IMG/VR virus record: IMGVR_UViG_3300020123_000077
Location: 1-62,711 of that record
Origin: a virus
Reading direction: 5' to 3' (one strand)
DNA length: 62,711 bases
The position numbers and the translations under genes are program-made. The notes beneath the pieces are model-generated. The model saw only the letters and a list, made by a program, of their open reading frames with translations, did not search any database and was not told the DNA's origin. This document shows, in pieces, positions 582 through 36,472 of the stretch (within the stretch, counting starts at the first letter, position 1; each line of letters begins with the position of its first letter).

Positions 582-599
582 TTTAAGGAGCAATAAATC

Positions 600-1046: not shown

Positions 1047-1053
1047 TACAAAC

Positions 1054-1076
1054 GGCGGGTTGCGGCCCGCCATTTT
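1054..1076 (+). terminator. Terminator-like hairpin after the virion gene
   Basis: GGCGGG (1054-1059) pairs perfectly with CCCGCC (1066-1071) around a 6-nt loop, followed by ATTTT. The T tract is short, so it is probably a partial terminator or an mRNA-stabilising hairpin that sets capsid genes apart from the downstream genes. Confidence 0.5.
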
Positions 1077-1087
1077 AGGAGACTCGC

Positions 1088-3601: not shown

Positions 3602-3603
3602 TC

Positions 3604-3936: not shown

Positions 3937-3943
3937 GCATGAT

Positions 3944-4504: not shown

Positions 4505-4566
4505 AATTAACTCCTTTGTATGTCCGTACATTGTACGTATATTGAAATGTTTTATCAAGGCAAAAA

Positions 4567-5788: not shown

Positions 5789-5901
5789 ATATTTATAGTC
5801 TGTGGTTAAAGATTTGGCTCGATGCTTTGATGTTGTTCGCGCCACCAAAGAAAACGAATGCAACCATACTAAAATTTGAACGAAAAAGAGGTTTGAGATG
5901 A
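5785..5901 (+). CDS. Small 38-residue protein, unknown
   Basis: An ATG overlaps the Rz stop (ATGA), and the stop TGA overlaps the ATG of the tailspike gene. So the frame fills the whole gap between the two genes with typical translational coupling. The protein has an amphipathic, Trp/Leu-rich N-terminal helix (YSLWLKIWLDALMLF) and a basic tail. It might be a membrane-associated lysis accessory. There is no homology evidence. Confidence 0.5.
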   Translation: MNIYSLWLKIWLDALMLFAPPKKTNATILKFERKRGLR

Positions 5902-8195
5902 CAACAGTTGTACTTGCCGATAACGCGTATGGAACATTAAGTGTCGGCATCACTGCCACTGATTCATCGATCTCACTGACTGCTGGACAAGGCGTTCGCT
6001 TCCCTGCTATCGCAGGCAGTCAGGTTTTATATGCATGCCTTGTTAATTCCTCCAATGTGATTGAGGAAGTACAGATTACCGTACATGGAACATCATCCGA
6101 TACTGCAACGATTGTACGCGGTGTAGGTAGTACGACACCTAAGGCATGGAGCGCTGGCGACAGGGTTGAAGCTCGTGTTTCAAAGGCTGTCTTGACCGAT
6201 CTAAATACTTATACGCCAGCTGGAACCGGTGGCGTTGCAATGACGCTGCAAAGCAAAGCAACGGACATATTAAATCTGAAAAACTATGGCGCGGTAGGTG
6301 ATGGCGTTGCCGATGATACGGCGGCATGGGTAAATTTTCTGGCGCAGTGCGTAGCGCAAAATAAACGCGGTTACATTCCATCAGGTGTGTATCTGATGGA
6401 TAAGTTTTCATTCACATCTGCACATGCTGGACTTGTGTTATTTGGCGATACATATGGCAGGACTGGAACGCGTCAAGGCGTGCCTCCACAAGCTGGTGTA
6501 TTCGGGTTATCTCCAACTTTATTTCGTTTGCGCACGGCTCAGTCAACTTTCGTTTCAATCGATGGATGCTATGATTTAACGATTGATAATGTAAGTTTGG
6601 ATGGAAATGGGTTTGCTGATACCGTTCTTTATGAGCCAGGCACAAACAATAATACACACACAAACTGGAACAACAGTTTCTTCATGCGTCCGACACCAAC
6701 CACTGGACGCGTGCATTGGTATGATGGCACCAATGGTGGAGAAGGGTGCAAGTTCTATAACTGTTATTTGAATGGGGATAATTTTCCAACGAATGGCAGT
6801 GTTGCAAAGAATTGTGTCTATATTGGAAATTCCAACGCATTCCTTGGTCGATATGATCATTGTGTTTTTAATGCTGCTACCGACTTGGTTGAGTTTTCAA
6901 CCGGGTCAGCAGATTTGGATACCTGCGAGTTTTATGGCGCGGTAAGTTCATGTATTAAGGTAACGAATACCTGCCAAGCATGCACGATCACCAATCCATA
7001 CTCAGAAGGTACGAATAACGTTAATTTCTTCCTTCAATCCGGCACGGCTGGTGTGACAGGTAATCGCACTATTCTTCTCATCAATCCGCAAGTCAATGCA
7101 ACAGGCATGACGATTCAACTGAACTGCCAACAACCTGTACACATTATTGACGGATTTTTAGGTTCTACTAATATTGATGTTACACCATTTGCGACTTATG
7201 GCGTGATGCACAATATCATTGTGGGTGTTGAGTTCAATACAGGGTTTGGCATTACCGGATCTGGTGCAACCACACAAACATTGTCATTCGGTTGTGGTGT
7301 TCTCGCCGCAGGAGTCTTTACCGAGACGATTAGTAATTGGCCAACCGGCCTTGTTGTGCAAGGCATGACTGTGGGGAATGGCGCGTCTGCGGTCGCAACC
7401 AACACCGCCTATGGTCAAAACGCATTGAGTGCGATCACGACGGGTGCAAGCAATACAGGTGTTGGTGGCGGGGCCGGATCTGCCATTACAACAGGAAATC
7501 ATAACACGGTGTTCGGCTCGTTTTCGCTAGACCAAGGCACGGTAACAGGCAGTGAAAACTTTGCTGCCGGACGTCTTGTCATGCGCCCCCTTACATCTGG
7601 CGCGAACAATTGCGTGTCAGGCAATCTCGCCGGCACTGCAATGACGACCGGGTCAAATAACACGCTGTATGGGTATAACGCTGGAGCGAATTTAACAACT
7701 GGCGGCGACAATACCATCATCGGAAAAGATTCGGCGGCATCGGCAAATAATGTGACATTTGAGATTGTTCTTGGTGATGGCTTAACTGGAAAAGGCACGC
7801 AAACTGCATTTATCGGCGGCACGAACGGTGTATATAACGCATTAAATGCATCTACCTGGACAACCAGTTCTGACGCGAGAGTCAAATCAATTATCGGCGA
7901 TTCAGAAAAAGGTCTTGCTCATATCTTGAGAGTGAATGTCAAAAATTTTACCTATCTTCCGCAAAATGAAATACCGGTCAATGAACATGGTGAGCCAATT
8001 GCAACCGATCTGGATTCGAGTAAAGTCATGACTGGTGCCATCGCTCAGGAAATTAGAGACCCATTTCCTGAGTGCGTAAACGAAAGTCCGACTTCGCTTC
8101 TGACTGTTAATGTCGATCCTATTATTTGGGCGCTTGTAAAAAGTGTGCAGCAATTATCTGCGCAGTTTGAAGAATACAAGTCGACACATCCATGA
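5898..8195 (+). CDS. Tailspike/tail fibre with pectate-lyase-like fold and S74 chaperone
   Basis: 765 residues. After an N-terminal adaptor (about 1-125), the motif NYGAVGDGVADDTAAW (about 132-147) marks the start of a right-handed beta-helix, the fold used by depolymerising tailspikes. The middle has Asn/Thr/Gly-rich repeats. The C-terminus (about 655-765) has the intramolecular chaperone peptidase S74 pattern: TSSDARVKSII, VMTGAIAQEI and a final coiled coil. S74 domains trimerise fibres and then cleave themselves off. This is likely the main receptor-binding protein. Confidence 0.85.
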   Translation: MTTVVLADNAYGTLSVGITATDSSISLTAGQGVRFPAIAGSQVLYACLVNSSNVIEEVQITVHGTSSDTATIVRGVGSTTPKAWSAGDRVEARVSKAVLTDLNTYTPAGTGGVAMTLQSKATDILNLKNYGAVGDGVADDTAAWVNFLAQCVAQNKRGYIPSGVYLMDKFSFTSAHAGLVLFGDTYGRTGTRQGVPPQAGVFGLSPTLFRLRTAQSTFVSIDGCYDLTIDNVSLDGNGFADTVLYEPGTNNNTHTNWNNSFFMRPTPTTGRVHWYDGTNGGEGCKFYNCYLNGDNFPTNGSVAKNCVYIGNSNAFLGRYDHCVFNAATDLVEFSTGSADLDTCEFYGAVSSCIKVTNTCQACTITNPYSEGTNNVNFFLQSGTAGVTGNRTILLINPQVNATGMTIQLNCQQPVHIIDGFLGSTNIDVTPFATYGVMHNIIVGVEFNTGFGITGSGATTQTLSFGCGVLAAGVFTETISNWPTGLVVQGMTVGNGASAVATNTAYGQNALSAITTGASNTGVGGGAGSAITTGNHNTVFGSFSLDQGTVTGSENFAAGRLVMRPLTSGANNCVSGNLAGTAMTTGSNNTLYGYNAGANLTTGGDNTIIGKDSAASANNVTFEIVLGDGLTGKGTQTAFIGGTNGVYNALNASTWTTSSDARVKSIIGDSEKGLAHILRVNVKNFTYLPQNEIPVNEHGEPIATDLDSSKVMTGAIAQEIRDPFPECVNESPTSLLTVNVDPIIWALVKSVQQLSAQFEEYKSTHP

Positions 8196-10315
8196 CAGGA
8201 TTTAAAGTATCCAATTTCGGCGGGGTCGTCCCGCGTTTGGGTGCACGATTATTGCCGAATGAAAGTGCGCAGACCGCACAAAACGTTAAGTTATTCTCCG
8301 GTGAGTTGCGTTCATGGTTTCGCCCGTTATTGATTAATACGCCCACTAAAGGCGGTGCATTACAGTCGATGTATCGAATCTATTCAACTAGTAGCGATTA
8401 TTGGTTGACGTGGACGGATGATGTGGACGTAGTAAAAGGGCCGATTGCCGGTGACACGGCTTTCAAGATTTACTATACAGGCGATACAACCACTTCTTCG
8501 AATAGCGTGGCTGGGCCGAGAAAAACAAACTTGGCTCTTGCGACTTCCGGCGGAACGGATTACCCGCACGATTATCTTGAGTTAGGTGTTCCAGCCCCTG
8601 GGTCTGCCCCGAGTGTCATTGGAACCGGTGGAACGTCAACCAATAGCGTGACGCGTGTCTATACCTATACGTATGTGACCTCTACCGCGAGTTGGGCAGA
8701 GGAAGGGCCGCCAAGCGCTACAGGAACCGGGACGGGCAAGGCAGACGCGACATGGGTGATCTCCAATTTATCGACAGGAACCACTGGTAAATATGCATTC
8801 AGCGGTGCGATCAAACGCATCTATAGAACGTTGACAGACAATTCCGGAAACACGAATTATCAGTTGGCATTAGACGGCGTACCGATTGCAACTACGAGTA
8901 CAAATGACACGGTAGCGGATGGTGCGCTCGGCGTTATCTGTCCGACATTCATTAATGGGGTTCTCAATTCGGAATGGGTTGGGCCACCATCTGATTTAAC
9001 CGGGATTATTGCGTTACCTAACGGTATTTTTGCAGGATTCTCCAAGAATCTGATTTGTTTCAGTGAGCCGTTTTACCCGCATGCATGGCCGATCCGATAC
9101 AGATTGGCAACGAACTTTAATATCGTCAGTCTTGGTGTATATGGGCAGACGTTAATCGTGACGACGAAAGGTTATCCGTACGCTGTGACGGGTGTGCGTC
9201 CTGACTCGATGGCGATGGCAAGGATTGAAGAATCTCATCCCTGTGTCTCAAAGCGTAGCACGGTGAGTTTCCCGTTTGGGGTTGCATGGGCGACACCAGA
9301 TGGTCTTGCATTGGCTGGGGTGGGGGGGGCCATTAACGCCATTGAACCATTCATGAAACGAGACGAATGGCGTAGTCAGTGTTTTCCTGACACGATCATC
9401 GCTCATCAGTTTCAGAATACGTATTTCGGATTTTTCTACAACGGCGTATCGGGTAATAATTTCATCTTCGATAAATCGAATTCGGAAGGCCCGCTGACAT
9501 TCGGCAATAATAATGTGCAGGGCGCATGGAATGATCCAGAGACATCAAAACTGTACCTGTTGCAGAATGGTCGAATTTATCAGTGGGATAGCGACACCAT
9601 TAACAACACTCCGTTTGAGTGGAAAAGCAAAGTATTTGTCACGCCAAACCCAATTAATTTTGGTGCTGCTTTAATCGATGCGGATTACGATGCACTGTCG
9701 CAAACGAATGCAATCGATACGCAAATAGCGTCAGATAAAACAACAAATAATCTGATATTAGGAACGGGTGCCGCTGATACACAGCACTTGACTGCATGGG
9801 CATCTACTACTGTTTATAGCACCAGCGATGTGCGAGTAAGTACGGATGGCGTGAAGATGATTATCTGTACAGTAGCCGGTACTTCTTCATCGTCAGAGCC
9901 GACTTATCCGAATCTGCTTGGCGGAACTACTACAGACGGCGCGGTACGTTGGAAGCAAATATGGGAAGAGCAAGGCGTCACGAAAGGTGCATTAAGAGAC
10001 GCTGCGTTACGTGGTCATACAACTGATCCTAACGACCCTATTATTGACGGTGCATACGGTAACGTACAGGGTTTTCCGCTTCGCAGCAGTTTGCTTGTCG
10101 GCGGCACATATCCAAATTATGATCAACGCATTTTGACGTTCGAGGCCTATGCGGATGGTGTATTGAAAACGTCTCAGGTATTGACGAGTCGCGATCCTAT
10201 TAGACTGCCAAAAGGCTTCAAATCCGATACGTGGGAATTCAAGTTAATCGGCAATATCAACGTCAGATATTTCAAGGTCAGTGAAACGTCGCAGGAACTT
10301 GGAGTGATTCAATGA
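8192..10315 (+). CDS. Large tail/hub virion protein
   Basis: 707 residues, almost wholly beta-rich, starting TGFKVSNFGGVVPRLG followed by NESAQTAQNVKL. Similar long proteins in P22-like and related podoviruses form the tail hub or stabilise packaged DNA. Its place directly after the tailspike (ATGA overlap) and before a second fibre-like gene supports a tail role. A run of eight G occurs near 9324 but the frame is intact. Confidence 0.6.
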   Translation: MTGFKVSNFGGVVPRLGARLLPNESAQTAQNVKLFSGELRSWFRPLLINTPTKGGALQSMYRIYSTSSDYWLTWTDDVDVVKGPIAGDTAFKIYYTGDTTTSSNSVAGPRKTNLALATSGGTDYPHDYLELGVPAPGSAPSVIGTGGTSTNSVTRVYTYTYVTSTASWAEEGPPSATGTGTGKADATWVISNLSTGTTGKYAFSGAIKRIYRTLTDNSGNTNYQLALDGVPIATTSTNDTVADGALGVICPTFINGVLNSEWVGPPSDLTGIIALPNGIFAGFSKNLICFSEPFYPHAWPIRYRLATNFNIVSLGVYGQTLIVTTKGYPYAVTGVRPDSMAMARIEESHPCVSKRSTVSFPFGVAWATPDGLALAGVGGAINAIEPFMKRDEWRSQCFPDTIIAHQFQNTYFGFFYNGVSGNNFIFDKSNSEGPLTFGNNNVQGAWNDPETSKLYLLQNGRIYQWDSDTINNTPFEWKSKVFVTPNPINFGAALIDADYDALSQTNAIDTQIASDKTTNNLILGTGAADTQHLTAWASTTVYSTSDVRVSTDGVKMIICTVAGTSSSSEPTYPNLLGGTTTDGAVRWKQIWEEQGVTKGALRDAALRGHTTDPNDPIIDGAYGNVQGFPLRSSLLVGGTYPNYDQRILTFEAYADGVLKTSQVLTSRDPIRLPKGFKSDTWEFKLIGNINVRYFKVSETSQELGVIQ

Positions 10316-25581: not shown

Positions 25582-26040
25582 ATTCAGGTGAATCAATGAT
25601 TGTGGCTTTTCAATAATCTCGTTCGATTGATAGCATGAAACACCAAGCGATGTAAATGCTTCCACCGTATCTGGGTCGCTTTCGAAGCGCATCAATACTT
25701 CCTCGCCCTTGCCTGCGTAGATATTCTGTGATGACTCTTGCTTGATGATGTGAGGTGGTCGCATATCCAAGTCTTCCCGCATGTGAATTGCACGTGGTTC
25801 CAGCATGCCAATTCCATTACACCATTCAATCATCTTTGAGCGGTCTCTCTCAGGTCGATTCGTCACGATATCGACATAAGGGATTTCATGGTCGCCATCA
25901 TCTTCTCTCAATGCATGGCCAATGATCTGCGCTTGCGTCACCAGCATATTGAACAGAACGACGCCGGATGGAATAGCCTCGCCTTTGGAGTCCATCAAGA
26001 CACCGTCAATTTCAAAAATAATCGCGTAACTTTTTTTCAT
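25576..26040 (-). CDS. HAD-like protein with altered nucleophile
   Basis: 154 residues. The start FEIDGVLMDS matches HAD motif I (DxDGxxxD) but with Glu in place of the nucleophilic Asp; motif II is probably VTNRPERDR, followed by an EWCNGIGM/MREDLDMRP-like segment seen in phage and LNS2-type HADs. The substitution may remove phosphatase activity. It is the last gene of the leftward cassette, converging on the polyvalent gene; the two stop codons share the palindrome TCATGA. It does not resemble the heptose phosphatase GmhB closely. Confidence 0.68.
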   Translation of the reverse strand: MKKSYAIIFEIDGVLMDSKGEAIPSGVVLFNMLVTQAQIIGHALREDDGDHEIPYVDIVTNRPERDRSKMIEWCNGIGMLEPRAIHMREDLDMRPPHIIKQESSQNIYAGKGEEVLMRFESDPDTVEAFTSLGVSCYQSNEIIEKPQSLIHLNS

Positions 26041-26945
26041 AATGTTCCAGGTGTGATTCCATTAGCGCTTAAGACTTCACGCGCACCAAGCCACGCTTGC
26101 GCCTGACCAAAGATCATATTGACGAGTGGATCCCATGCATCCATACGAACGCCTTCCGGATGTAGATGGACGGCTTGCAAAGCACAGGTATGATAGAGCC
26201 GGTAGAGTTGTGCGTGATTTAACTCGGCAACACGCATGGATTCAACCGGATCGTTTTCAGCAGCCAGCATCTTCCCTCCAAATCCCATGTTCTCTGCACT
26301 CGCATGCTTGACATGAACGTGGTGCGGTTCTGCGATGACATAAAATCCCTTATCCAGAGCAGCCAGATAGCCCCACAGTACGTCGATTGTGTTGGGGCCA
26401 GCATGCGGCATCTTCTCCAAGAACTCGCGTGAATAACCGGCGATCACCGAACCATAAGCGAGTCTTGCAATTCCCTCACCGGCCGGCACATAGCCCGTCT
26501 CGGTTGGAAAGCCCGATACAGAATGCGCACCTACCGTGATGTCAACATCAGGTTCTGTGAAAAACATTGTCGTTGCAATCGCAGAGCATGGATTTTTCTC
26601 GATGGCTTCCATGCAGACCTTAACCCTATTTTCCAAAGAGTAGTCATCAGCACTGCATTGTAGTATGAAGTCAGCGTCAGTTTGCTTGACACACCAATCC
26701 ATATGTAGGTTCCCTGTTGCCATGCAATACGGGCCATCTATCGGACACGATACAACTCTTATTTCATGCTCGGCACCACGGGGGCATTCTAGAATCGCTT
26801 TGCCAATAACCTCCAAAGAATTATCCGTCGATCCTTGGTCGCTGATCAGGATCTCGCAAGGATATGTCTGTGCCAATGCACCTTGAACGGCTTTGTAGAC
26901 ATGCTGCGCTTTGTTTCTGTTATTGATTAGGAAGCAGATTTTCAT
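26037..26945 (-). CDS. Glycosyltransferase, GT-A fold (GT2-like)
   Basis: 302 residues. The N-terminal strand-loop KICFLINNRNKAQHV and the pattern LISDQGSTDNSLEV mark a GT2-type nucleotide-sugar domain. The metal-binding DxD-like site is SADDYSLENR at about residue 98. The C-terminal half is variable. Such enzymes move a sugar from a nucleotide donor to an acceptor in the cytosol. Here it shares a transcript with heptose-pathway genes, so a modified heptose may be its donor; this is inference. ATGA overlap links it with both neighbours. Confidence 0.8.
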   Translation of the reverse strand: MKICFLINNRNKAQHVYKAVQGALAQTYPCEILISDQGSTDNSLEVIGKAILECPRGAEHEIRVVSCPIDGPYCMATGNLHMDWCVKQTDADFILQCSADDYSLENRVKVCMEAIEKNPCSAIATTMFFTEPDVDITVGAHSVSGFPTETGYVPAGEGIARLAYGSVIAGYSREFLEKMPHAGPNTIDVLWGYLAALDKGFYVIAEPHHVHVKHASAENMGFGGKMLAAENDPVESMRVAELNHAQLYRLYHTCALQAVHLHPEGVRMDAWDPLVNMIFGQAQAWLGAREVLSANGITPGTL

Positions 26946-27415
26946 TTTTTATCCTCAGATGAGTCGCGCCACTCGTTAAGTTTTAAGCCATATAAACTAA
27001 GATTAATTTTTATTATATTAAGTTTTTTCGGCCCTAAATTTGGAACTTTAAGCAACTGATAGGCTGTCTTTGAGATAAGTTCATCAATAGAATTGATGCC
27101 TTCTGCACTCAATATCTGTCTAAGATTTTGGTGAATTTTTTTATCAAAAACTATATCCATAGAAACGGTAGGAGCCTTTAAAAGTATTTCTTTTGATTTT
27201 GTTTCTATATATTCATTTGCAACTATATTTATTTCTGGAATCTCGAACACTAAAAAAACGTTTGGCCCTCCCTGCCTAAGTGAAAATTTATCATTGAAAG
27301 CATTTGCAATTGTGTCTGCTACTGATCTATCCGAAAAAACACCGACTATAGCGGATGTAACACCATGATGAAGGCATCCGATATTCATAACTAACCATTG
27401 TTTTTTAATGTCCAT
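26942..27415 (-). CDS. Protein with RNA polymerase alpha-CTD-like domain
   Basis: 157 residues. The N-terminal 95 residues are an unrecognised alpha/beta domain. Residues about 100-150 align with the bacterial RNA polymerase alpha-subunit C-terminal domain: INSIDELISKTAYQLLKVPNL, GPKKLN and LYGLKLNEW match IGDLVQRTEVELLKTPNLG and the following helices. By that alignment, the E. coli alpha R265 position is Asn, but NLG and a Lys near position 298 remain. This could act on transcription, or the fold may serve as a general HhH DNA-binding unit. Confidence 0.72.
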   Translation of the reverse strand: MDIKKQWLVMNIGCLHHGVTSAIVGVFSDRSVADTIANAFNDKFSLRQGGPNVFLVFEIPEINIVANEYIETKSKEILLKAPTVSMDIVFDKKIHQNLRQILSAEGINSIDELISKTAYQLLKVPNLGPKKLNIIKINLSLYGLKLNEWRDSSEDKK

Positions 27416-27423
27416 GATAATTA

Positions 27424-29712
27424 TTAAATGAAATTTTTATGCAACACGCCATCGCCATTCGTCAGTTTAATTAACTCAATGCCTTTTGCATGCCTATCAA
27501 GCGCAACATTTGCATAATGCTGGATTGATAAAGTACCTTGCATAGTTTGTGCGTCCCATGCTGGTGAAGCCAAGTAATTCATAGCTCGACTGTAGCGATC
27601 TGATTTAAAAATATCGATAAAGCGTTCTTCAGTAAAATTACCTAAATGAAGCTTTGAATAACGAGCATTAAAGAATAGTCCAGCCGGAGCGACCAATCCG
27701 CTACCACTAATTTGCAATAAAAAATTACAACCATATACCCTATTATATGACGTCTTGTCACCATCCTTTATTTTGTCCCACTTAACAATGACCTTGGTTT
27801 GTTCCGTGCTCATTGCTTCAGCCTGAGACAGTAGACTATACATGTCTTCGTACTTTGAATAATCCACACCAAGAGTATGGGCCTCATCATCACTGCAATG
27901 TTTTATGACTGCATAGTCAACACCAAGATCAACGCCAAGTTTAGCAAAGTCAAGAATCTCATCCTTAAATTCTGGCATCAATACCATCTGGATGCCCAGC
28001 GTGACTTTCAACCCAAGCTTACGTTTGAGATCGACTGCGTACTTGATATGCGACATGGCTCGATCAAACACGTGCGTATGCTCTTTCCCCTTGTACATGA
28101 TAGCTGCGTAGCTTTCTGGACGACCTGCTGCGACAGTGAAGCGCACCCATGACAAGTGCGGAAGTACTTGGTCAATCTTTTCCGGTTCCCACTCCCATGC
28201 ATTCGTCGCGTTGCCGACATCGATACCAAGTTCTGCTGCATGCTGGATGAATGGTACATATGCTTTTGAAAGTGTGCTCTCGCCATCAGAGACGAGCGAC
28301 ACAGCGCGCACACCGATCTCAGCGAAGTCATCCAATAGATTCAGTGCGTGGATCGTCTTGATGTTCGGACGTTCCTGCGGCTCTTGCATCATCGCATAGC
28401 AGTTATGAACAATTACTCCAGATGCAATGAAGTTGTGATGTGGAGAACATTCTAAATCGAAAACTGGTGAACATCCGGCATCGTTGATCGACAAGATTGG
28501 ATGCCACTCAACCACATACTCACTTCTTTTTCCACTTGATTGAAATGTTTTTGCAGAAGATGGTTCTCTATCCATAACACAAATATTTTCCATCCAGCCA
28601 TCGAGTAGTCCAGCATCTCGATGGTCGCCTCCGTTTCTTTGTGCCAATATCGTCCGTGTAGTAATAATGCAATCTTGTTCTTGCCTCTCTCCAAAATGTA
28701 ATCCGGATTCCTGGAGATTCCGCTTTGTGTCTTGTTTATCCAAAATTCTGAATCTCCTGTGTACTTGAATCCCATTGGAGAAATCAGGGTGAATAGTTTT
28801 GCCTCCGTTTTGTTCATCCCATTCTTTACTGCCATTCTTCGATGTGCTGACGTTATTTTCCCCTCTGACCAAGTTTGTTTCATTCGATTCGATGAAACAA
28901 TATTTGCCCCGTTCAATTTGCGCGTTTGAATAACCTTGTTGACTGTTTCCAAATTTTTCATTGGGTTGTTCGCCTTCATGAGATTTGAATACATTTCCCT
29001 TCGCTCTGCGGACATTGGGTTCTTTGGACGAAAACTTCCATTGGCTTGACGTTCTCTCGTCTCCTTTGAAAAGCGCTCTCCATGCTTTTCTGAAAAAGTC
29101 TTTCCAGCTTGAGCGGCTATCTCGGCATTTTTCATTGGATTGTTGGTTTTCATGCGAGCGGATGCTTTCATTTTTTCCGCTGCCGATATTGGAGTTTTCC
29201 TCCCCATCTTCCCAGACTTTATTTGCTCTATCATTTTGAGCCGCATTTTCTGTTTTTCCTCTTCTGATCGAGGGCCGTATCGTGCCAATTAAATCTCCAA
29301 TATCAAGTTTTCCAGCCGCAACCCATCCTTTATTAGTAAGCACAGGATGATCTAATGAACAACGTAAAACATCATTCGCTGTTATTAAAGATATTATACT
29401 CTTACTTGGACTTGTTTCCCAATGTGCCAACACTGTACTTTCACATATGTTGCCATCATTGAAAGATACTACACGATCACCTATGGATATAGCTGACATT
29501 GGCTTTTTAGAGCCATTCGCCATAAGGATTAATTCCTCTGGAGGAATGCAGAAGCTACACATCGCTCCGCAACTTCTTGTCAAAGCCATATCAATCGATA
29601 CTGGCGCGATCTTCTCGCCAGCTTCCCATGATTGAACACGGTCATAGTGATAACCAAGTTTATGCGAGTCAAGAATTAATGTGCCTTCTTTTGTTTTGAT
29701 TGCGTCACTCAT
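27424..29712 (-). CDS. Radical SAM enzyme interrupted by an intein
   Basis: 762 residues as translated. The N-extein is residues 1-54, the intein 55-437 and the C-extein 325 residues, giving an enzyme of about 379 after splicing. The radical SAM cysteines are C48 and C52 of CGAMCSF plus the first C-extein Cys (CYAMMQEP), reforming CxxxCxxC only after splicing. The C-extein has the SAM-barrel pattern (SLVSDGESTLSK, GIQMVLMPEF) and a Cys-poor SPASM-like end (YGCNFLLQISG). A second, intein-free homologue is at 36747-37835. Substrate unknown; neighbours suggest sugar or peptide modification. Confidence 0.88.
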   Translation of the reverse strand: MSDAIKTKEGTLILDSHKLGYHYDRVQSWEAGEKIAPVSIDMALTRSCGAMCSFCIPPEELILMANGSKKPMSAISIGDRVVSFNDGNICESTVLAHWETSPSKSIISLITANDVLRCSLDHPVLTNKGWVAAGKLDIGDLIGTIRPSIRRGKTENAAQNDRANKVWEDGEENSNIGSGKNESIRSHENQQSNEKCRDSRSSWKDFFRKAWRALFKGDERTSSQWKFSSKEPNVRRAKGNVFKSHEGEQPNEKFGNSQQGYSNAQIERGKYCFIESNETNLVRGENNVSTSKNGSKEWDEQNGGKTIHPDFSNGIQVHRRFRILDKQDTKRNLQESGLHFGERQEQDCIITTRTILAQRNGGDHRDAGLLDGWMENICVMDREPSSAKTFQSSGKRSEYVVEWHPILSINDAGCSPVFDLECSPHHNFIASGVIVHNCYAMMQEPQERPNIKTIHALNLLDDFAEIGVRAVSLVSDGESTLSKAYVPFIQHAAELGIDVGNATNAWEWEPEKIDQVLPHLSWVRFTVAAGRPESYAAIMYKGKEHTHVFDRAMSHIKYAVDLKRKLGLKVTLGIQMVLMPEFKDEILDFAKLGVDLGVDYAVIKHCSDDEAHTLGVDYSKYEDMYSLLSQAEAMSTEQTKVIVKWDKIKDGDKTSYNRVYGCNFLLQISGSGLVAPAGLFFNARYSKLHLGNFTEERFIDIFKSDRYSRAMNYLASPAWDAQTMQGTLSIQHYANVALDRHAKGIELIKLTNGDGVLHKNFI
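28402..29550 (-). mobile_element. Intein (383 residues) in the radical SAM gene
   Basis: Block A starts at Cys1 (CIPPEELILMANGS...ISIGDRVVSF). Block B is DVLRCSLDHPVLT, with its His. The C-terminal blocks F/G are CSPVFDLECSPHHNFIASG and VIVHN followed by Cys+1. All catalytic positions for standard splicing (Cys1, block B His, HN, Cys+1) are present. The middle (about residues 90-340 of the intein) is hydrophilic, Lys/Asn/Ser/Arg-rich and has no DOD endonuclease motif, because the DNA there encodes a Vsr-like endonuclease in another frame. Confidence 0.9.
28452..29246 (-). CDS. Vsr-like (EDxHD) homing endonuclease gene nested out of frame inside the intein
   Basis: 264 residues from the ATG at 29246 (AGAGGA upstream); a TTG at 29288 just after an in-frame TAA is an alternative. 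Its frame is +1 relative to the intein. The N-terminal half repeats a NUMOD3-like NNPMKNxE motif three times. The C-terminal half has an EDxHD-type nuclease core: MNKTEAKLF, RNPDYILE and LLLHGRYWH, then WKIFVLW. This family was first seen as free-standing genes inside split inteins. Here it makes the intein mobile while not interrupting its frame. Confidence 0.82.
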   Translation of the reverse strand: MRLKMIEQIKSGKMGRKTPISAAEKMKASARMKTNNPMKNAEIAAQAGKTFSEKHGERFSKETRERQANGSFRPKNPMSAERREMYSNLMKANNPMKNLETVNKVIQTRKLNGANIVSSNRMKQTWSEGKITSAHRRMAVKNGMNKTEAKLFTLISPMGFKYTGDSEFWINKTQSGISRNPDYILERGKNKIALLLHGRYWHKETEATIEMLDYSMAGWKIFVLWIENHLLQKHFNQVEKEVSMWLSGIQSCRSTMPDVHQFSI

Positions 29713-29897
29713 GCTATTTTTCTTTCAAGTAGCCACTTGGCAAATTGATGTACATCTTCATCAACAGTTATATTTTCAGATGAATTAATGCTCACATTCA
29801 CATGGTAATTGCTTGCTATGTATGGAGCAACAAGTCTAATTGTCTTAACCATTAAATCAAGCGTTTTATTTTCCTCTTCTTTTTGCTTGTTACTCAT
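29709..29897 (-). CDS. Small hypothetical protein
   Basis: 62 residues, charged N-terminal helix (SNKQKEEENKTLDL), then an alternating strand (YHVNVSINSSENITV) and a C-terminal helix (HQFAKWLLERKI). It overlaps the radical SAM start by four bases and the next gene by four, so it is translationally coupled within the cassette. Unrecognised. Confidence 0.5.
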   Translation of the reverse strand: MSNKQKEEENKTLDLMVKTIRLVAPYIASNYHVNVSINSSENITVDEDVHQFAKWLLERKIA

Positions 29898-30214
29898 AAT
29901 TGCTTCACCTCAATACCTCTTAATTTTCTTAACGGGCTTTTATCTCCCTGTGATTCCAACCACACCGTAAGTGATGGATCGACATTCTTCTTTAGGCATT
30001 CTTCAAGATCAAGCAATAACCCGCCGCGTTGATTTGCTGGTACGTTTTCACTGAACTCAACCAGAACCTGACCATCTATTTTGGATTCTTTCAACGTGAT
30101 GATTTTTGAGAATTTGCAAATTTCATCTCTGATGACAAGCGCTCTTACAAGTTTATTCTGAGCCAACCATTCTTTGCTTGGCGTAGGAGTTTTTTCAAAT
30201 GCATGGTTAATCAT
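29894..30214 (-). CDS. Small hypothetical protein
   Basis: 106 residues, alpha/beta, with FSKIITLKESKIDGQVLVEFSE and a C-terminal GDKSPLRKLRG segment; no Cys, no membrane segment. It sits between the cupin-TPP enzyme and a 62-residue gene, with ATGA overlaps at both sides. It may be a partner of the TPP enzyme or the radical SAM enzyme. Unrecognised. Confidence 0.5.
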   Translation of the reverse strand: MINHAFEKTPTPSKEWLAQNKLVRALVIRDEICKFSKIITLKESKIDGQVLVEFSENVPANQRGGLLLDLEECLKKNVDPSLTVWLESQGDKSPLRKLRGIEVKQL

Positions 30215-32568
30215 TCCAAAATCTCCACAGGTTTAACAATCATTTGCTCATTGAATTCATCTCTTGGTAGAAAGGGAAAGAGATCCTCCAAAGGCTTACT
30301 GACAATCGATCCATCAGGGCGCTTCAGGCTGGACAGACGTGGGATCAATGGCTGATCTGGTGCCATCATGATTTCATAGATCGTTGGTGAATAGCGCTCC
30401 TTGAGTCCGTATAATTCATCCAGCAATTGTTTGTGGTTCTCAATTCTTACGGCTGGAATATCATACGCCTTGGCTATTTTCAATGTGTCAGGAAAACTGA
30501 CGCCACTCGATTCTTCGCTTCCCACCATTCTTCCGAAGTGATTTGCTTGCATGTGTTTGATTGTAAGGTATCCGCCGTTATTCAAAACGAAAATAATGAT
30601 AGGAAGATTTAAATGTTTTATCGTCTGTAGTTCTTGAATATTAAACTGTAATGCGCCGTCTCCGACGATACAGACAGTTTTCTTTCTTCCGCTGGCAAGG
30701 CACGCCCCAATTGCACCTGGTAGTCCATACCCCATCGGCGCATGGCCAGACGCCGTGATCCAGCGTTGATACGCCTTCATCTTCGCAGTTTGGAACGTAG
30801 CAGTAAAGGCCGTACCCATATCTGTGACGACAACCGCATCCCAATATAATTTTTCCGAAAGCTTTTCAATAAAATAGAAACTATTTACGTATTCTTTTTG
30901 TTCTGCGTACTCCGGTAAGACAACTGGATATTTTTGCTTCCATTCAAGACACTGAATCAACCATTTTGATGGCTCATTAATTTCGAAAGGAATCGTCTTA
31001 CGAAGACCATTAATGAATTGTTTTGCATCGCAAACGATGCCGAGATCAACATGTAGAGATGGCTTGACAATTTCAGCCTCGTCCACATCGACCATGACGA
31101 TCTTTGCTTCACGTGCAAACGTCGAGAAGTTATAACCAGTTTGCGGGACGGATAGTCTGCAGCCAACGACAATCAATAGATCGGCATTTTGCACGGTGAA
31201 GTTACCAGCCCGATCACCGAAGATTCCGAAGTGACCAATGTGTTTCTGCTCATTGATCAACAGGTCTGATCCTGTCCACGAAGACAAGATAGGGATATCC
31301 AGATGCGCACACAGCGCACGTAATTCGTTCTGTGCACTGGCCAACCGAACACCGTTTCCAATAACAAGAGCAGGGCGCTTTGCCTCTCTCAGCATCATTA
31401 AGCATTTTTGCACGTTCTCATCCAGCGAGATATTGGATATTTTCGGATGTGGTATTGTTTTGATTGGTACGTCGGTATAGCTATCCAATTCTAATGGATT
31501 GATTTGCTTTGCCTGAATGTCCAGTGGGATATCGACCCAAACCGGCCCCTGCCTTCCTGACCTTGCGATATGAGCGGCTTTTTCCAGTTCGTAGCGGATG
31601 TCTTTTTCATTCATCACTGTGACAGCATATTTTGTAATCGACTTTACCATCGTCACAATATCGGATTCTTGCACGCCGAATTGACGAAGTCCAAGTCCGG
31701 TTAAAAGTGTATCGCGTGTTACTTGTCCAGAGAGATATAGAACAGGAATACTATCGACCCAAGCGCAAGCCACGCCTGTGATAGCGTTTGTCCCTCCGGG
31801 GCCAGTAGTGACAAGAGCGCACCCAATACCGTTAATACGAGAATAAGCTTCAGCAGCCATCGCAGCGCTTTGCTCATGATGCGTCGCCACATATTCAAGT
31901 CCTTCATGTTTTCCAACCGAGTCGCACAAATGCATGGCTCCGCCACCCGATACGGAGAACACATGTTTGATGCCAAGCTTTGCAATGAAGTTGGTAACGT
32001 AGTCGGATACTTTCATGGTCGTTTCTTTTTCAATACTGAAAACATATTCAGCAAGATTGCCAATAGCCATAACAAGCCCATTTGGTTTTTCATGCCATCC
32101 ATCAGTACTTTGAATTCTAAACTGATAGCCCATAAAACTGAATGGCACGTCAGATAATTCAAGCAGCTTCCCTTTATATGGAATCTCGTCCGTTTCAATC
32201 GGCTTACCGGCGCGGCCATACGAATCTTCTTTTCGAATGATATCGCCTTTATCATTCGGTTCTTCAATCTCGATTAACCAGACGCCATTTTCAGAAGTTG
32301 GGATTAAAGAAAACGGATTGATTGCATGACTCTGGTGATAAACACCTTTTGGAATATCCGCAATTTCCAATGGGTTCAACAATCGAGTGCCAGACTCATC
32401 CGTAAACATCAATCCTTCTGTTAAAGGAATGAGACGTGTCCGTTTGTTTGGATGGCAGTGAAATGAAGTGGAATGACCTCTGGCGATGTGCAATATCCAA
32501 ATAGCCACACTATCTGTTTCGTATGCACAGTACTCATAACCCCATCCTTTTTTGACGATGCCTGTCAT
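30211..32568 (-). CDS. Cupin fused to thiamine-diphosphate enzyme (acetolactate synthase-like)
   Basis: 785 residues. Residues 1-175 are a cupin like those of sugar isomerases or epimerases (SFHCHPNKRTRLIPL, then IADIPKGVYHQSHA). Residues 185-785 are a complete TPP enzyme: a GGGAMH and ATHHEQSAAMAAEAYSR region with the catalytic Glu, TTGPGGTNAITG, the middle domain with GNGVRL, and the PP domain with GDGALQFNIQEL and NNGGY. Such enzymes transfer pyruvate-derived units, including onto keto-sugars. An internal ATG at 32016 could give the TPP part alone. Confidence 0.82.
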   Translation of the reverse strand: MTGIVKKGWGYEYCAYETDSVAIWILHIARGHSTSFHCHPNKRTRLIPLTEGLMFTDESGTRLLNPLEIADIPKGVYHQSHAINPFSLIPTSENGVWLIEIEEPNDKGDIIRKEDSYGRAGKPIETDEIPYKGKLLELSDVPFSFMGYQFRIQSTDGWHEKPNGLVMAIGNLAEYVFSIEKETTMKVSDYVTNFIAKLGIKHVFSVSGGGAMHLCDSVGKHEGLEYVATHHEQSAAMAAEAYSRINGIGCALVTTGPGGTNAITGVACAWVDSIPVLYLSGQVTRDTLLTGLGLRQFGVQESDIVTMVKSITKYAVTVMNEKDIRYELEKAAHIARSGRQGPVWVDIPLDIQAKQINPLELDSYTDVPIKTIPHPKISNISLDENVQKCLMMLREAKRPALVIGNGVRLASAQNELRALCAHLDIPILSSWTGSDLLINEQKHIGHFGIFGDRAGNFTVQNADLLIVVGCRLSVPQTGYNFSTFAREAKIVMVDVDEAEIVKPSLHVDLGIVCDAKQFINGLRKTIPFEINEPSKWLIQCLEWKQKYPVVLPEYAEQKEYVNSFYFIEKLSEKLYWDAVVVTDMGTAFTATFQTAKMKAYQRWITASGHAPMGYGLPGAIGACLASGRKKTVCIVGDGALQFNIQELQTIKHLNLPIIIFVLNNGGYLTIKHMQANHFGRMVGSEESSGVSFPDTLKIAKAYDIPAVRIENHKQLLDELYGLKERYSPTIYEIMMAPDQPLIPRLSSLKRPDGSIVSKPLEDLFPFLPRDEFNEQMIVKPVEILE

Positions 32569-33113
32569 TTGAAATATCCAATAACTTCCCGCATGAAGTC
32601 ACAGTTATTTTTATAGTGGGGCGCGGTGATCATATTGCCGTCAACCACTACCGGCAGATCCCAATAATAAGCACCAGCATTTTGGATATCGTCCTTAAGA
32701 GATGCGTAGCACGTGGCTTTTATACCACCCATAATTCTTGCTGATATTCCGACCCAAGCCGCATGACAGATCATTGCAACTAATTTATTCGATGCGAACA
32801 TTTCATGGACAAAGTCCAATACCTCTTCTCGCATACGAAGAATGTCAGGGCTTTGGAATCCGCCTGGTATCAACACAACATCATAGTCACTAGCATCCAA
32901 TTCTTCCACGAGCTTTGTGATGCTAAGAGGTACGCCAAACTTTCCGCGAATGACATCCGGACGGCCTTTAACTTCCTTACCCTCCTTGCGCCATGTTCCA
33001 GGTGTGGCTACATCGACATGCCAACCAGCTTCCAGCATGCGATGGTAGGCATATAAGCCCTCCTCATCCTGCCAGCCTTCTGCAATCAGCATAACAGCGC
33101 GAATCATAAGCAT
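32565..33113 (-). CDS. DJ-1/PfpI family protein
   Basis: 182 residues. The DJ-1/PfpI fold is shown by the N-terminal strand AVMLIAEGWQDEEGL, the VLIPGGFQSPDILRM motif and the nucleophile elbow MICHAAWVG with the reactive Cys at about 115. Family members are glyoxalases, amidases or chaperones. Here the neighbours are sugar-phosphate genes, so it may protect or modify a reactive sugar intermediate. It overlaps the isomerase by ten bases. Confidence 0.8.
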   Translation of the reverse strand: MLMIRAVMLIAEGWQDEEGLYAYHRMLEAGWHVDVATPGTWRKEGKEVKGRPDVIRGKFGVPLSITKLVEELDASDYDVVLIPGGFQSPDILRMREEVLDFVHEMFASNKLVAMICHAAWVGISARIMGGIKATCYASLKDDIQNAGAYYWDLPVVVDGNMITAPHYKNNCDFMREVIGYFK

Positions 33114-33607
33114 CCAATCATAGAATGAAGAATTGCAAGATGAGATATTTCAACCAAGCCATAATCCATTGAGTCAATCCAGAAATTGACATCACCCATC
33201 TGGCGAAGACGATTATCTTTTCCAAAGCCGGATAATGTGATAATTGGCATGTTGCGAGACTTCGCTTCACCAACAGCGTTCAATATATTGGCCGATCTTC
33301 CAGAGCTTGAGATGGCGACTAACACGTCGCCCGGCTTTGCATACCATTCAATTTGCTTGGAGAATACGTGATCAAAACCGTAGTCATTGGCTACACAAGT
33401 TAGAGCCGATGCGTCATTAAATGCAATCGCTTCTTTTTTCCCGTTCTTACTCCAATCCACTGCCATGTGCGAGGCAATCGCAGCAGATCCACCATTACCG
33501 ATAAAAATAATACGGGTAGCATTTTTAAATAGCAAAACCATTCGTGCAATATCTACGCTTGGCACTTGCGATAATGATGCATTTAGTTGTGCAAAAAATG
33601 GCGTCAT
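33104..33607 (-). CDS. gmhA: Phosphoheptose isomerase-like SIS protein
   Basis: 167 residues, a single SIS domain with the ligand-binding stretches FIGNGGSAAIASHMAVD, VAISSSGRSANILNA and the C-terminal EISHLAILHSMIGC, which are GmhA-like. GmhA turns sedoheptulose 7-phosphate into D-glycero-D-manno-heptose 7-phosphate. The next genes encode the two later heptose steps, which supports the assignment. Confidence 0.82.
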   Translation of the reverse strand: MTPFFAQLNASLSQVPSVDIARMVLLFKNATRIIFIGNGGSAAIASHMAVDWSKNGKKEAIAFNDASALTCVANDYGFDHVFSKQIEWYAKPGDVLVAISSSGRSANILNAVGEAKSRNMPIITLSGFGKDNRLRQMGDVNFWIDSMDYGLVEISHLAILHSMIGCL

Positions 33608-34485
33608 GAAAATACCTCTTCTTCTTTAATTACCACCGTTCCAAAACGACCAACAGAAATGCCGGATGCCTTATTCGCATATCTCATCGCATCAACAAAA
33701 CAGTTCCCACGTGTCAGCGCAACAGCGAAGGCAGAGATCGCCACATCACCGGCACCGCACACGTCGTAGACTTCAATCGCTTCTGTCTTGACATGTGTCG
33801 TACCGCCCGGCGTGAATAGCGTCATGCCATCTGATGCGCGAGTCAATAGAATGGATTTGAAATCACCATCAACCATGAGCTTGTGTGCTTTGACGGATAG
33901 TTCTTCTTCCGATCCCCATCCTCCAACAAGTTCGCGCAACTCATCCAAGTTTGGTTTGATCAAGTCGGCACCGCGATACTTCTCGAATGAGTATCCTTTA
34001 GGGTCAACCAGAATAATTTTATCGAGCGCTTTGGCTTGTTTAATCAAGTCTTGAATATTCGACAGCGCACCTTTTCCGTAATCAGAAAAAACGATGATGT
34101 CGTAATCAGTAAATTCTGGCAGCGATTCAATCTTTGCGGATGGGCGCGATTCGAAATCAATGCGGACTATTTGTTGTTGTTTTCCTATGACGCGCAATTT
34201 TTGCGTCGTGTTCATAGATGAATCGACCCTCAATAAACTATCAACGCAGCCAAGCTTTAATTGAGTGGCGAGGGTTTCACCATATATATCATCACCGACA
34301 ATGGAAAGAAGGCGCGTATTTGCGCCCATTGCTTGGCAGTTCATGGCGACATTTGCTGCAGCACCCGGACGTTGCTCTTCGCGCTTCATCATTACGACAG
34401 GTACTGGTGCTTCTTGCGATAGTTTAGTCACGTCGCCGAAGTAATACCTATCCAACATGGAATCTCCAATTACTAGAATGCTCAT
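33604..34485 (-). CDS. hldA: Heptose 7-phosphate kinase-like protein (PfkB family)
   Basis: 293 residues. PfkB carbohydrate kinase motifs: DSMLDRYYFGDVTKLSQEAPVP at the start, RPGAAANVAMN, KPNLDELREL, and the anion-hole/catalytic YDVCGAGDVAISAF near residue 250. The closest named family is HldE-N/RfaE kinase that makes heptose 1,7-bisphosphate. It lacks the fused adenylyltransferase, which is instead encoded by the next gene upstream. Confidence 0.85.
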   Translation of the reverse strand: MSILVIGDSMLDRYYFGDVTKLSQEAPVPVVMMKREEQRPGAAANVAMNCQAMGANTRLLSIVGDDIYGETLATQLKLGCVDSLLRVDSSMNTTQKLRVIGKQQQIVRIDFESRPSAKIESLPEFTDYDIIVFSDYGKGALSNIQDLIKQAKALDKIILVDPKGYSFEKYRGADLIKPNLDELRELVGGWGSEEELSVKAHKLMVDGDFKSILLTRASDGMTLFTPGGTTHVKTEAIEVYDVCGAGDVAISAFAVALTRGNCFVDAMRYANKASGISVGRFGTVVIKEEEVFS

Positions 34486-34884
34486 GCCGCTGTTCCCATT
34501 AACATTTCCCCCGTCATGATTTTTGTGGAGCTATACTTAGGCGTATTGATAAATACAACGCGACCACCAAGCGATTCAACCAAATCCTGCTCTGGCAATT
34601 TATCTTTGTACTCTATGCCTTTCGCATAGATCGCTGGCTTTATATTCAAGATAGCCTGTTCCGCACTATCCGAGATGATGACCCTGTTCACACAACGGAG
34701 TGCCATTAACATGTCACGTCGAATTGATTGGTTAAATAATGGGCGATTCGGCCCTTTATTTACATTACCATCAGAAGTGACTGATACAACCAAAATATCC
34801 CCTAGTTCTTTTGCTGCTTCAAGATAAGATAAATGTCCGAAATGATATAAATCAAAAGCAGCCGTGACATAGAACTACACGCAT
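34482..34884 (-). CDS. hldC: Heptose 1-phosphate nucleotidylyltransferase-like, split by a +1 frameshift at UUU-UGA
   Basis: From the ATG at 34884 (with GGAGGT 6 nt upstream) the frame reads MRVVLCHGCF then TGA. Skipping one T continues as DLYHFGHLSYLEAAKELGD, VTSDG, NKGPNRPLF and YAKGIEY, exactly the HldC/RfaE-C pattern (HGCFDLxHxGH). Only the one-base shift restores it; total length would be 133 residues, as expected. No start codon occurs in the downstream frame before its conserved part. The junction resembles the prfB +1 site. A sequencing error or a pseudogene cannot be excluded. Confidence 0.72.
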
Positions 34885-35519
34885 GTCACACCTCCTTTCG
34901 ATTTTAAACGGCCCATATCCTTGACAGGATCTAGAAGCGCCTTTTCTATAGGCCATCCAGCAGAAAGACGACGTCCAAGTGTGGTACGCTTTATGTTAAA
35001 TTTTTTTGCGAATTCTTTCATACAAAGCGTTTCACCTTGATATGTCAGAAATAAATTACTTGATCTATTCCTTGCTTGCTCTGTATCTGTAGCCCATCTA
35101 CAATTTGATGGCTCGTAATTACCATTGTTATCTTTGCGATCTAGTGTCATACCAGCCGGTCTTTCTCCCATATCTGCCAAGAAATTTTCGAAACTGGCAA
35201 TCCATCTATCACATATAGTAATTCCACGACCGCCATAATTAGAATATTGGCGATGTTTTTTATTTAAGCATCTAGTCTTCATTCCAGAATATGTTCTATA
35301 TGTTTCGGAGTTTGATTTACCATGAGTCTTATTATTTTCACCGGCCAAGCATCCACAAGATCTGGTGCCGCCCCTAGTAAGCATTGCACCTTGAGTTACA
35401 ATCTCTTTTCCGCAATCGCACAAGCATCTCCACATCCTTTTTCCGGATTTGAAGCCGACATCCTCTATGGCGATAAGTCTTCCATAGCGCATGTTTGAAT
35501 GGTCGATTCTTTTTATCAA
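34875..35519 (-). CDS. HNH homing-type endonuclease with zinc motif
   Basis: About 214 residues. The TTG at 35519 is preferred because GGAGG stands 7 nt upstream and it overlaps the epimerase stop; an ATG at 35537 is an alternative. A zinc-binding region CLCDCG...CGC (about 35-65) is followed by SNYGGRGITICDRW, then the HNH-like MTLDRKDNNGNYEPSNCRWA core and a C-terminal HTH (MKEFAKKFNIKRTTL). Its last codons hold the RBS and start codon of the hldC-like gene, so the insert supplies expression signals to its neighbour. Confidence 0.78.
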   Translation of the reverse strand: MIKRIDHSNMRYGRLIAIEDVGFKSGKRMWRCLCDCGKEIVTQGAMLTRGGTRSCGCLAGENNKTHGKSNSETYRTYSGMKTRCLNKKHRQYSNYGGRGITICDRWIASFENFLADMGERPAGMTLDRKDNNGNYEPSNCRWATDTEQARNRSSNLFLTYQGETLCMKEFAKKFNIKRTTLGRRLSAGWPIEKALLDPVKDMGRLKSKGGVTCV

Positions 35520-36472
35520 GACAATGCCTCCATCCATGGCTTTGTTTCTTCCGCAATGGCTTCAGGCGTCCATACAGTTTGATTTTTCCATTCGTCCAGA
35601 TGTTCAAGCATCTCTGCAACGCCATCTTCGAATTTAATTTTTGGTTTCCATCCAAGCGCCATCTTTATTTTTGTGCAATCAGCATAAATTTCTTTTGGTT
35701 CCCCCGGTCTACTAGGAATATAAATACGCTCACCGCCAATTAAGCCAGCCAAATAATTAACGGATACGCCAATTTCAGCGCCGACATTATAGGCATATCC
35801 AGGTATCGCAGATCTTACGGATTCCGCAGCAAGAATAAATGCTGCGCATACATCGCTAACATGAACGAAGTCACGGGTTTGTGTGCCATTTCCGACAATC
35901 GTCAACGGCTTCCCATTTGCGCGTTGTGCCATGAATGTGGAAAACACGGAGCCATAGCAACTTTTATACTGCCCACGCCCGTATACATTAAATAGCCGTA
36001 ATGATACAACTGGAATGTCGTATACTGCGTCCCAATGCATTGCCGTTCTCTCTCCCATTAATTTTGATAACGCATACGGATATTCTGTTTTTAATTGAGA
36101 TGATTCTGAGGTTGGTAGATTTGGGCATTTACCATAACAAGAACTACTAGCCGCATAGACAAATTTTTTCACGCCAGCTTTACGCGCCGCCTCAAGCACA
36201 TTGATTGTTCCCATGACATTTGTGCTCATATATTCAACAGGATTGGCGATAGACGGCACAATATCCGCAAGTCCCGCAAGGTGAAAGCAATACGTGGCAT
36301 CTTTCATTGCAAGATCAAGTGATGCAAGATCGGTACGGATATCTTGGCCGCATTTCAGATCGAAACCACGAACTTCATAACCATTGTCTTCAAGATGTTT
36401 GACCAAGTATTTTCCTATAAATCCACTTGAGCCGGAAATAAATGCGATGGGTTTTGTCACAGCAGCACCCAA
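35516..36472 (-). CDS. NAD-dependent epimerase/dehydratase (extended SDR)
   Basis: 318 residues. NAD-binding GSSGFIGKYL at the start, catalytic YALSK (Y and K of YxxxK) with the Ser-rich ASSSCYG before it, and substrate-domain RLFNVYGRGQ and YNVGAE. The family epimerises or dehydrates nucleotide sugars. In this cassette it could change the sugar made from the heptose genes (HldD-like or another C4/C6 epimerase); the sequence alone does not decide. Confidence 0.8.
   Translation of the reverse strand: MGAAVTKPIAFISGSSGFIGKYLVKHLEDNGYEVRGFDLKCGQDIRTDLASLDLAMKDATYCFHLAGLADIVPSIANPVEYMSTNVMGTINVLEAARKAGVKKFVYAASSSCYGKCPNLPTSESSQLKTEYPYALSKLMGERTAMHWDAVYDIPVVSLRLFNVYGRGQYKSCYGSVFSTFMAQRANGKPLTIVGNGTQTRDFVHVSDVCAAFILAAESVRSAIPGYAYNVGAEIGVSVNYLAGLIGGERIYIPSRPGEPKEIYADCTKIKMALGWKPKIKFEDGVAEMLEHLDEWKNQTVWTPEAIAEETKPWMEALS

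What the first reader, a model, noticed from the sequence alone, without database searches (positions are those of the whole stretch)
28452..29550. Vsr-like homing endonuclease gene lying out of frame inside an intein whose own frame stays open
The endonuclease (28452-29246) reads in the +1 frame relative to the intein (28402-29550). Despite about 264 shared codons, the intein frame holds no stop, and its product there is a long Lys/Asn/Ser-rich loop, as expected from out-of-frame reading of another gene. Known EDxHD endonucleases with inteins were found between the halves of split inteins; here a continuous intein and a nested gene share the same DNA. This would be an intermediate in, or an alternative to, intein splitting. 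A long open frame by chance is improbable, so selection to keep the intein whole is likely.
Basis: partly seen in the sequence, partly recalled or inferred. Interest (0 to 1): 0.92.

Follow-up and report, generated by a model that had tools for sequence, protein, structure and literature searches.

The report
Nuclease gene hidden inside an intein
In this virus one stretch of DNA is read two ways at once: in one frame as the floppy middle of a self-removing protein segment (an intein), in the other as a DNA-cutting enzyme that probably spreads the intein; at least 18 other phage sequences do the same, so it is a recurring arrangement and a possible link to split inteins.

Summary
A radical-SAM gene (27424-29712, -) carries a complete 383-aa intein at the last Cys of its CxxxCxxC motif; a 73%-identical homolog lacks it. 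Inside lies a 278-aa Vsr-superfamily homing endonuclease gene in the +1 frame, starting at TTG 29288 behind a GGAG site. With the nuclease protein held fixed, synonymous shuffling predicts 15 stops in the intein frame; none occur (minimum 5 in 30,000). AlphaFold gives a confident Hint domain around a disordered loop in one frame and a confident nuclease core in the other.

This is no one-off. I found 19 distinct loci in phage radical-SAM, MoxR-ATPase, terminase and PolA inteins. All have the nested gene in +1 (the phase where every stop is synonymously avoidable) and no host-frame stop. About 40 terminase-type relatives with related nucleases, several verified at the same insertion point, are split inteins with a free-standing nuclease; their stop counts equal chance. 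Substitutions fall mainly at nested third positions, so the nuclease is what selection preserves; the intein loop need only stay open.

Cis-splicing plus homing by a separately translated nuclease is inferred, not shown. Whether nested forms precede split ones is unresolved. I found no earlier description, but the key 2009 paper was not held.

The parts
27424..29712 (-). Radical SAM protein gene interrupted by the intein, one continuous ORF of 762 codons
   Evidence: Radical_SAM Pfam 3e-6 and SPASM-type hits
29551..29712 (-). N-extein, ending ..SCGAMCSF, directly before the last Cys of the CxxxCxxC cluster motif
   Evidence: intein-less homolog L005 reads ..GCGSMCRFCYAAIQ
28402..29550 (-). Continuous intein, 383 aa: C1 (CIPPEEL...), block-B His 68, VIVHN at the end, Cys +1
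   Evidence: Pfam Intein_splicing 2e-12; invariant C1, H68, N383 in an alignment with five other nested inteins; Foldseek hits to RecA and DnaB mini-inteins at 7e-6 to 1e-5
29272..29550 (-). N-terminal Hint half (intein residues 1-93)
   Evidence: AlphaFold pLDDT 74-95 by 10-residue block
28525..29262 (-). Intein-frame loop (intein residues 97-342), predicted disordered, Lys/Asn/Ser-rich, no stop
   Evidence: pLDDT below 50 over 97-342 except residue 153; 0 stops against 15 expected
28402..28524 (-). C-terminal Hint half (intein residues 343-383)
   Evidence: pLDDT 71-95; TIGR01443 intein_Cterm 2e-5
29295..29298 (-). GGAG, candidate ribosome-binding site of the nested gene, inside the Hint N coding sequence (host codons GGA GAT = Gly-Asp)
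   Evidence: read; GGAGATTTAA-TTG, spacing 6 nt
28452..29288 (-). Nested endonuclease gene, 278 aa, TTG start, +1 frame relative to the host gene
28929..29267 (-). Helical NUMOD3-like DNA-binding repeats of the nested protein (S.E..K.KM..MK.NNPMKN)
   Evidence: read; matched at 31-40% identity by intein or HEG proteins L001-L003
28503..28850 (-). Vsr-like nuclease domain (FKYTGD..FW ... NPDYILERGKNKIALLLHGRYWHK ... GWKIFVLW)
   Evidence: pLDDT mostly 80-95 over residues 151-260
27427..28401 (-). C-extein beginning CYAMMQEPQERP

Best explanation
One mobile element uses the same DNA twice. Read from the host gene's start, it encodes a radical SAM enzyme with a cis-splicing class 1 intein whose homing-endonuclease slot is filled by a ~245-residue disordered loop. 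Read from an internal TTG with its own ribosome-binding site, in the +1 frame, the DNA of that loop encodes a separate NUMOD3 + Vsr-like homing endonuclease. The nuclease is proposed to cut intein-free copies of the gene across the insertion site, so that the whole intein with its nested gene is copied in; the intein keeps the enzyme functional by splicing out. Keeping the intein frame open requires only that no NNT codon of the nuclease precedes AA, AG or GA, which is always achievable by NNT to NNC. SHOWN by sequence: intact Hint blocks, open frame beyond chance, nuclease homology, purifying selection on the nested frame in relatives, recurrence in 19 loci. INFERRED: splicing, translation from the internal start, DNA cutting, homing.
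For: Both frames are recognised by independent family models. Intein-frame stops: 0 against 15.3 expected, minimum 5 of 30,000. The same in 18 further distinct sequences, 0 against 8-23 expected each, all in the same phase. Control: split relatives show stops at the chance level, e.g. 55 vs 52.6 and 59 vs 52.3. NNT before AA/AG/GA: 0 of 767; NNT elsewhere: 28% of 1757. Pairs of relatives: nested aa identity 0.55-0.63 vs 0.30-0.40 in the host frame, fewest matches at nested position 3; in the closest pairs substitutions at nested positions 1,2,3 are 8,5,33 and 4,3,24. AlphaFold: confident Hint halves with a disordered loop in one frame, confident nuclease core in the other. Intein-free homolog L005. 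Start with SD in the window, and in the terminase loci ATA-GGA-GAN-TTT-TAT-GA serves as the Shine-Dalgarno site and ATG of the nuclease while encoding the intein's own IG(E/D)FY.
Against: No experiment: splicing through a 245-residue disordered loop and cutting are not shown. No close relative of the window locus itself was found, so purifying selection was measured on cousins, not on this pair of frames. The 'continuous' class is defined by an open host frame, so pooled expectations over loci are not an independent test; the per-locus permutations are. The SD at the TTG is short (4 nt), and L166 has no obvious SD-start pair. The structure search of the nuclease gave only weak PD-(D/E)xK hits (best E 3e-3, low TM-score) and did not list Vsr or I-Bth0305I in the rows shown.
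Confidence: 0.88

Rival explanations
1. Sequencing or assembly error: two compensating indels in an ordinary intein with an in-frame Vsr-like endonuclease domain create an apparent out-of-frame gene.
For: A +1 then -1 indel near 29290 and 28520 would give the same picture, and in-frame HEG-intein fusions exist.
Against: An artefact would leave the unused frame with about 15 stops; it has none. The same phase and openness recur in 19 distinct loci, several in identical copies from different assemblies (L171/L172, L176-L179, L181/L182, L183/L184). A start with SD sits where the nested ORF opens.
Confidence: 0.02
2. The open intein frame is a by-product of nuclease composition (few stops by chance) and the locus is really a split intein or dead element.
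For: The loop product looks like random out-of-frame sequence; third-frame stops are at expectation.
Against: 0 vs 15.3 stops with amino acids and codon usage held fixed; all splice-site residues intact; true split relatives show no stop depletion.
Confidence: 0.02
3. The nuclease is made by programmed ribosomal frameshifting from the intein frame, as a Hint-N/nuclease fusion, rather than from an internal start.
For: L166 and the N-terminal part of some nested ORFs lack an obvious start with SD; related loci with an in-frame N-half/nuclease fusion (L110, L116) or nuclease/C-half fusion (phage Va1, L161) exist.
Against: Window: TAA directly before TTG with GGAG at 6 nt. The terminase loci with a complete 5' end have ATG behind AGGAG (AGGA in L171) at one conserved place. 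No slippery site was searched for.
Confidence: 0.07
4. The nested nuclease no longer drives homing and is kept only as a free-standing selfish gene or for another phage function; the intein is a passive shelter.
For: Free-standing Vsr-like HEGs of the same family occur outside inteins, e.g. next to an intein-free terminase in Caulobacter phage Cr30. No homing event was observed.
Against: The nuclease sits inside the intein in 19 loci at splicing-neutral positions, and purifying selection on it is clear in relatives.
Confidence: 0.15

Closest known systems
'Fractured genes': split inteins with a free-standing Vsr-like (EDxHD) homing endonuclease between the halves (Dassa et al. 2009, doi 10.1093/nar/gkp095; content from memory, paper not held)
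   Same: Same nuclease superfamily, same position between Hint halves, phage hosts; free-standing start codon; examples recovered here in the same data (L103, L121, L134, G007 uvsX)
   Different: Here the intein frame is not broken: one ORF crosses the nuclease gene, so splicing would be in cis
Atypically split terminase inteins AceL-TerL and GOS-TerL (IntN 25-37 aa; PMC11766414)
   Same: The nested terminase loci carry a TerL intein with the nuclease gene opening about 30-40 residues into it
   Different: Continuous, not split; the nuclease gene lies in the +1 frame of an open host frame
Canonical inteins with an in-frame LAGLIDADG or HNH domain (e.g. many in G011 and G012)
   Same: Hint domain interrupted at the canonical homing-endonuclease slot; cis-splicing architecture
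   Different: Endonuclease is not part of the intein polypeptide; it is a second protein from another frame
I-Bth0305I, the EDxHD homing endonuclease (PMC3943268)
   Same: Nuclease domain tethered to a NUMOD-type DNA-binding region; Vsr-like motif
   Different: Host element is an intein and the frames overlap; catalytic Glu-Asp-x-His-Asp assignment not verified here

Membership tests
Class 1 intein | Nucleophile at residue 1, block-B His, C-terminal His-Asn, Cys/Ser/Thr at +1 | tested here: met
   C1, H68, V-H-N383, Cys+1
Class 1 intein | Hint fold | tested here: met
   Intein_splicing 2e-12; AlphaFold Hint halves and Foldseek hits to RecA/DnaB mini-inteins, E 7e-6 to 1e-5
Class 1 intein | Insertion in a conserved site of a host protein, intein-free alleles exist | tested here: met
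   CxxxCxxC site; L005 lacks it
Class 1 intein | Protein splicing activity | not testable with these tools
   needs expression
Vsr-superfamily / EDxHD homing endonuclease | Sequence relation to Vsr | tested here: met
   TIGR00632 E 5e-4, below its curated cut-off score; family profile finds bacterial Vsr at 1e-6 to 1e-11
Vsr-superfamily / EDxHD homing endonuclease | Catalytic residues of EDxHD conserved | tested here: inconclusive
   Conserved E, NPD[FY], [HD]G.YWH in the rSAM/MoxR nested set, but no alignment to I-Bth0305I was obtained
Vsr-superfamily / EDxHD homing endonuclease | Site-specific cutting and homing | not testable with these tools
   needs assay
Fractured gene (split intein + free-standing HEG) | Host gene and intein broken into two ORFs by stops | tested here: not met
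   host ORF continuous, 0 stops vs 15.3 expected
Same-strand overlapping (nested) gene pair | Both frames maintained beyond chance | tested here: met

The most novel reading that the evidence does not exclude
Out-of-frame homing endonuclease genes nested in continuous inteins are a recurrent mobile-element architecture of phages, fixed in the one reading phase where stops are always synonymously avoidable, and they are the state from which atypically split inteins such as AceL-TerL arise when the host frame is allowed to close.
Probability: 0.45. Interest if true: 0.92.

Novelty: new variant of a known kind. Interest (0 to 1): 0.82.

Why it matters
It shows how a homing endonuclease can occupy an intein without being fused to it and without breaking it, which makes the origin of split inteins directly testable: the same terminase intein site exists with the nuclease nested in an open frame and with the intein split. 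It is also a large, clean case of overlapping genes, with a mechanistic reason for the phase used, and a warning that annotation of inteins can miss a whole nuclease gene.

Tried and rejected
Searches with the full nested protein found only NUMOD3-like relatives, and its nuclease domain alone found none; PDB sequence searches found no nuclease homolog; cultured phages gave no relative of the window's nested protein or DNA nor of the L152 or L146 nucleases. A genome-contig scan gave only ordinary Vsr genes. G+C-rich loci with an accidental overlapping ORF (L129, L032, L071, L090) were rejected: plain Vsr genes, no Hint. Short spurious sub-ORFs in G+C-rich inteins of G011/G012 were ignored. An indel artefact was considered and rejected. 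Trees to orient the change cluster the continuous terminase nucleases (a 96/95-supported group of 10 continuous + 2 split) but are unrooted and do not settle direction. Literature searches found no description of such nesting; Dassa 2009 itself was not held.

Full report
THE OBJECT. On the minus strand, 27424-29712 is one ORF of 762 codons. Its ends are a radical SAM / SPASM-type protein. After ..SCGAMCSF the frame runs into a 383-residue intein (29550-28402) and returns to CYAMMQ... Removing the intein restores the CxxxCxxC iron-sulphur motif, and a 73%-identical phage homolog reads GCGSMCRFCYAAIQ without an intein (L005). The intein matches Pfam Intein_splicing at 2e-12, has C1, a block-B His, the terminal His-Asn and Cys+1, and its model has two confident Hint halves (residues 1-93 and 343-383) that match RecA and DnaB mini-inteins in the PDB, while residues 97-342 are predicted disordered.

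THE NESTED GENE. In the +1 frame of the same strand, 29288-28452 encodes 278 residues. The ORF opens with TTG right after TAA, 6 nt behind GGAG, inside the host codons for the Hint motif Gly-Asp. NUMOD3-like repeats are followed by a Vsr-like nuclease domain: TIGR00632 E 5e-4, conserved TGD..FW, NPD[FY], HG.YWH, GW..F..W. A profile of five nested nucleases (the window among them) hits bona fide bacterial Vsr genes. The nuclease core is modelled with pLDDT mostly 80-95; structure search gave only weak PD-(D/E)xK-type hits. The nuclease domain lies between the two Hint halves and only its C-terminal tail runs into the Hint C coding sequence.

MORE THAN CHANCE. Permuting synonymous codons of the nested gene, so that protein and codon usage stay fixed, gives 15.3 stops in the intein frame with a minimum of 5 in 30,000 permutations; the real count is 0, while the third frame is at expectation.

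RELATIVES. Degenerate DNA patterns for the nuclease core led to further cases: radical SAM genes L147 (G005), L146 (G006), L167, L168; MoxR-type ATPases L164/L152 (G011) and L166/L156 (G012); terminase large subunits L169, L171, L173, L174, L175, L176, L180, L181, L183, L185, L186; and an HNH endonuclease nested in a PolA intein of G011 (L150). With the window that is 19 distinct sequences. All have the nested gene in +1, 0 host-frame stops where 8-23 are expected per locus. Several occur as identical copies in different assemblies. The terminase set and the radical SAM/MoxR set use different Hint insertion points, and the PolA case uses a different nuclease family, so at least three origins are likely (inference).

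CONTROL. The same scans returned about 40 distinct Vsr-like nucleases, mostly of the terminase type, whose intein is split; there the frame of the C-half crosses the nuclease with the stops expected from codon usage, in either phase. Nothing intermediate was seen. Where checked, the split terminase loci have the same intein, the same N-half motif (GKCF.INT.I.LRNK.TGEI.E.TIGEFYE) and related nucleases, i.e. the AceL-TerL / GOS-TerL kind of atypical split (PMC11766414). One contig, G007, carries a nested terminase intein, a second terminase intein split by an HNH gene, and a uvsX gene fractured by a Vsr-like gene. The 'continuous' label is itself defined by an open frame, so the evidence is each locus's own permutation and the two-state distribution, not a pooled sum.

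WHAT SELECTION SEES. Between relatives the nested protein is more conserved than the host-frame loop (0.55-0.63 vs 0.30-0.40), and differences concentrate at nested third positions. NNT codons are absent (0 of 767) where the next codon begins AA, AG or GA, but make up 28% elsewhere. In this phase every stop can be removed synonymously (NNT to NNC); in the other phase 7% cannot. So the nuclease keeps its sequence, and the intein only needs an open linker.

START SITES. In the terminase loci ATA GGA GA(A/T) TTT TAT GA, coding for the intein's IG(E/D)FY, carries AGGAG and, 6 nt on, the ATG of the nuclease (L171 has AGGA). Window, L147 and L146 have GGAG or GGAGG 6-8 nt before TTG or GTG. L166 lacks an obvious start with SD and is unexplained.

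MECHANISM AND LIMITS. Best reading: cis-splicing intein plus a separately translated homing nuclease from the same DNA. Splicing, internal initiation, cutting and homing are inferred. The trees group the continuous terminase nucleases, with two split loci (L187, L189) inside the 96/95-supported group, but are unrooted, so 'nested before split' is open.

NOVELTY. No paper in the held library describes an endonuclease gene nested out of frame inside a continuous intein. The most relevant paper (Dassa et al. 2009) was not held, so priority is not certain.

Noticed in passing
L122 (contig G007), reverse-complement coordinates 1-3445 and 6123-8613: One phage contig with three intein architectures: nested +1 HEG in terminase, second terminase intein split by a free-standing HNH gene, and uvsX fractured by a Vsr-like gene.
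   Followed up: partly
L150 (G011), reverse-complement 2057-6937: A DNA polymerase A gene with several inteins; the first has an HNH homing endonuclease (184 aa) nested in the +1 frame, the others carry in-frame endonuclease-type domains.
   Followed up: partly
G011 and G012 (L149-L158): Large phage contigs crowded with inteins (14 and 6 Intein_splicing matches), including a reductase-like gene with three inteins (L154).
   Followed up: no
L161 (Vibrio phage Va1, MK387337.2 66152-68437): The annotated 'putative terminase (T4 gp17-like)' is a homing nuclease fused to an intein C-half and the terminase C-part; the N-half lies in the preceding ORF.
   Followed up: partly
L162 (Desulfovibrio phage 7757, record without annotation): DNA polymerase B gene fractured by a split intein with a free-standing Vsr-like nuclease in between.
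   Followed up: no
L027 371-1222 with the upstream ORF ending at 367: Free-standing Vsr-like HEG whose last residues (FLRFRQDMSP) repeat the end of the upstream gene (LLRFRQDMSP), as if the insertion copied the gene's 3' end.
   Followed up: no
L187 and L189: Split terminase-type inteins whose nucleases fall inside the otherwise continuous group (96/95); candidates for a nested-to-split conversion.
   Followed up: partly
L166 / L156 1569-2507: Nested ORF without an obvious start codon behind a Shine-Dalgarno site before its zinc-finger-like motif.
   Followed up: partly
window 30211-32568 (-): One ORF joining a cupin-like N-part to a thiamine-diphosphate (acetolactate-synthase-like) enzyme, beside the rSAM gene in what looks like a small sugar or metabolite gene island (26037-36472); judged by eye only.
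   Followed up: no
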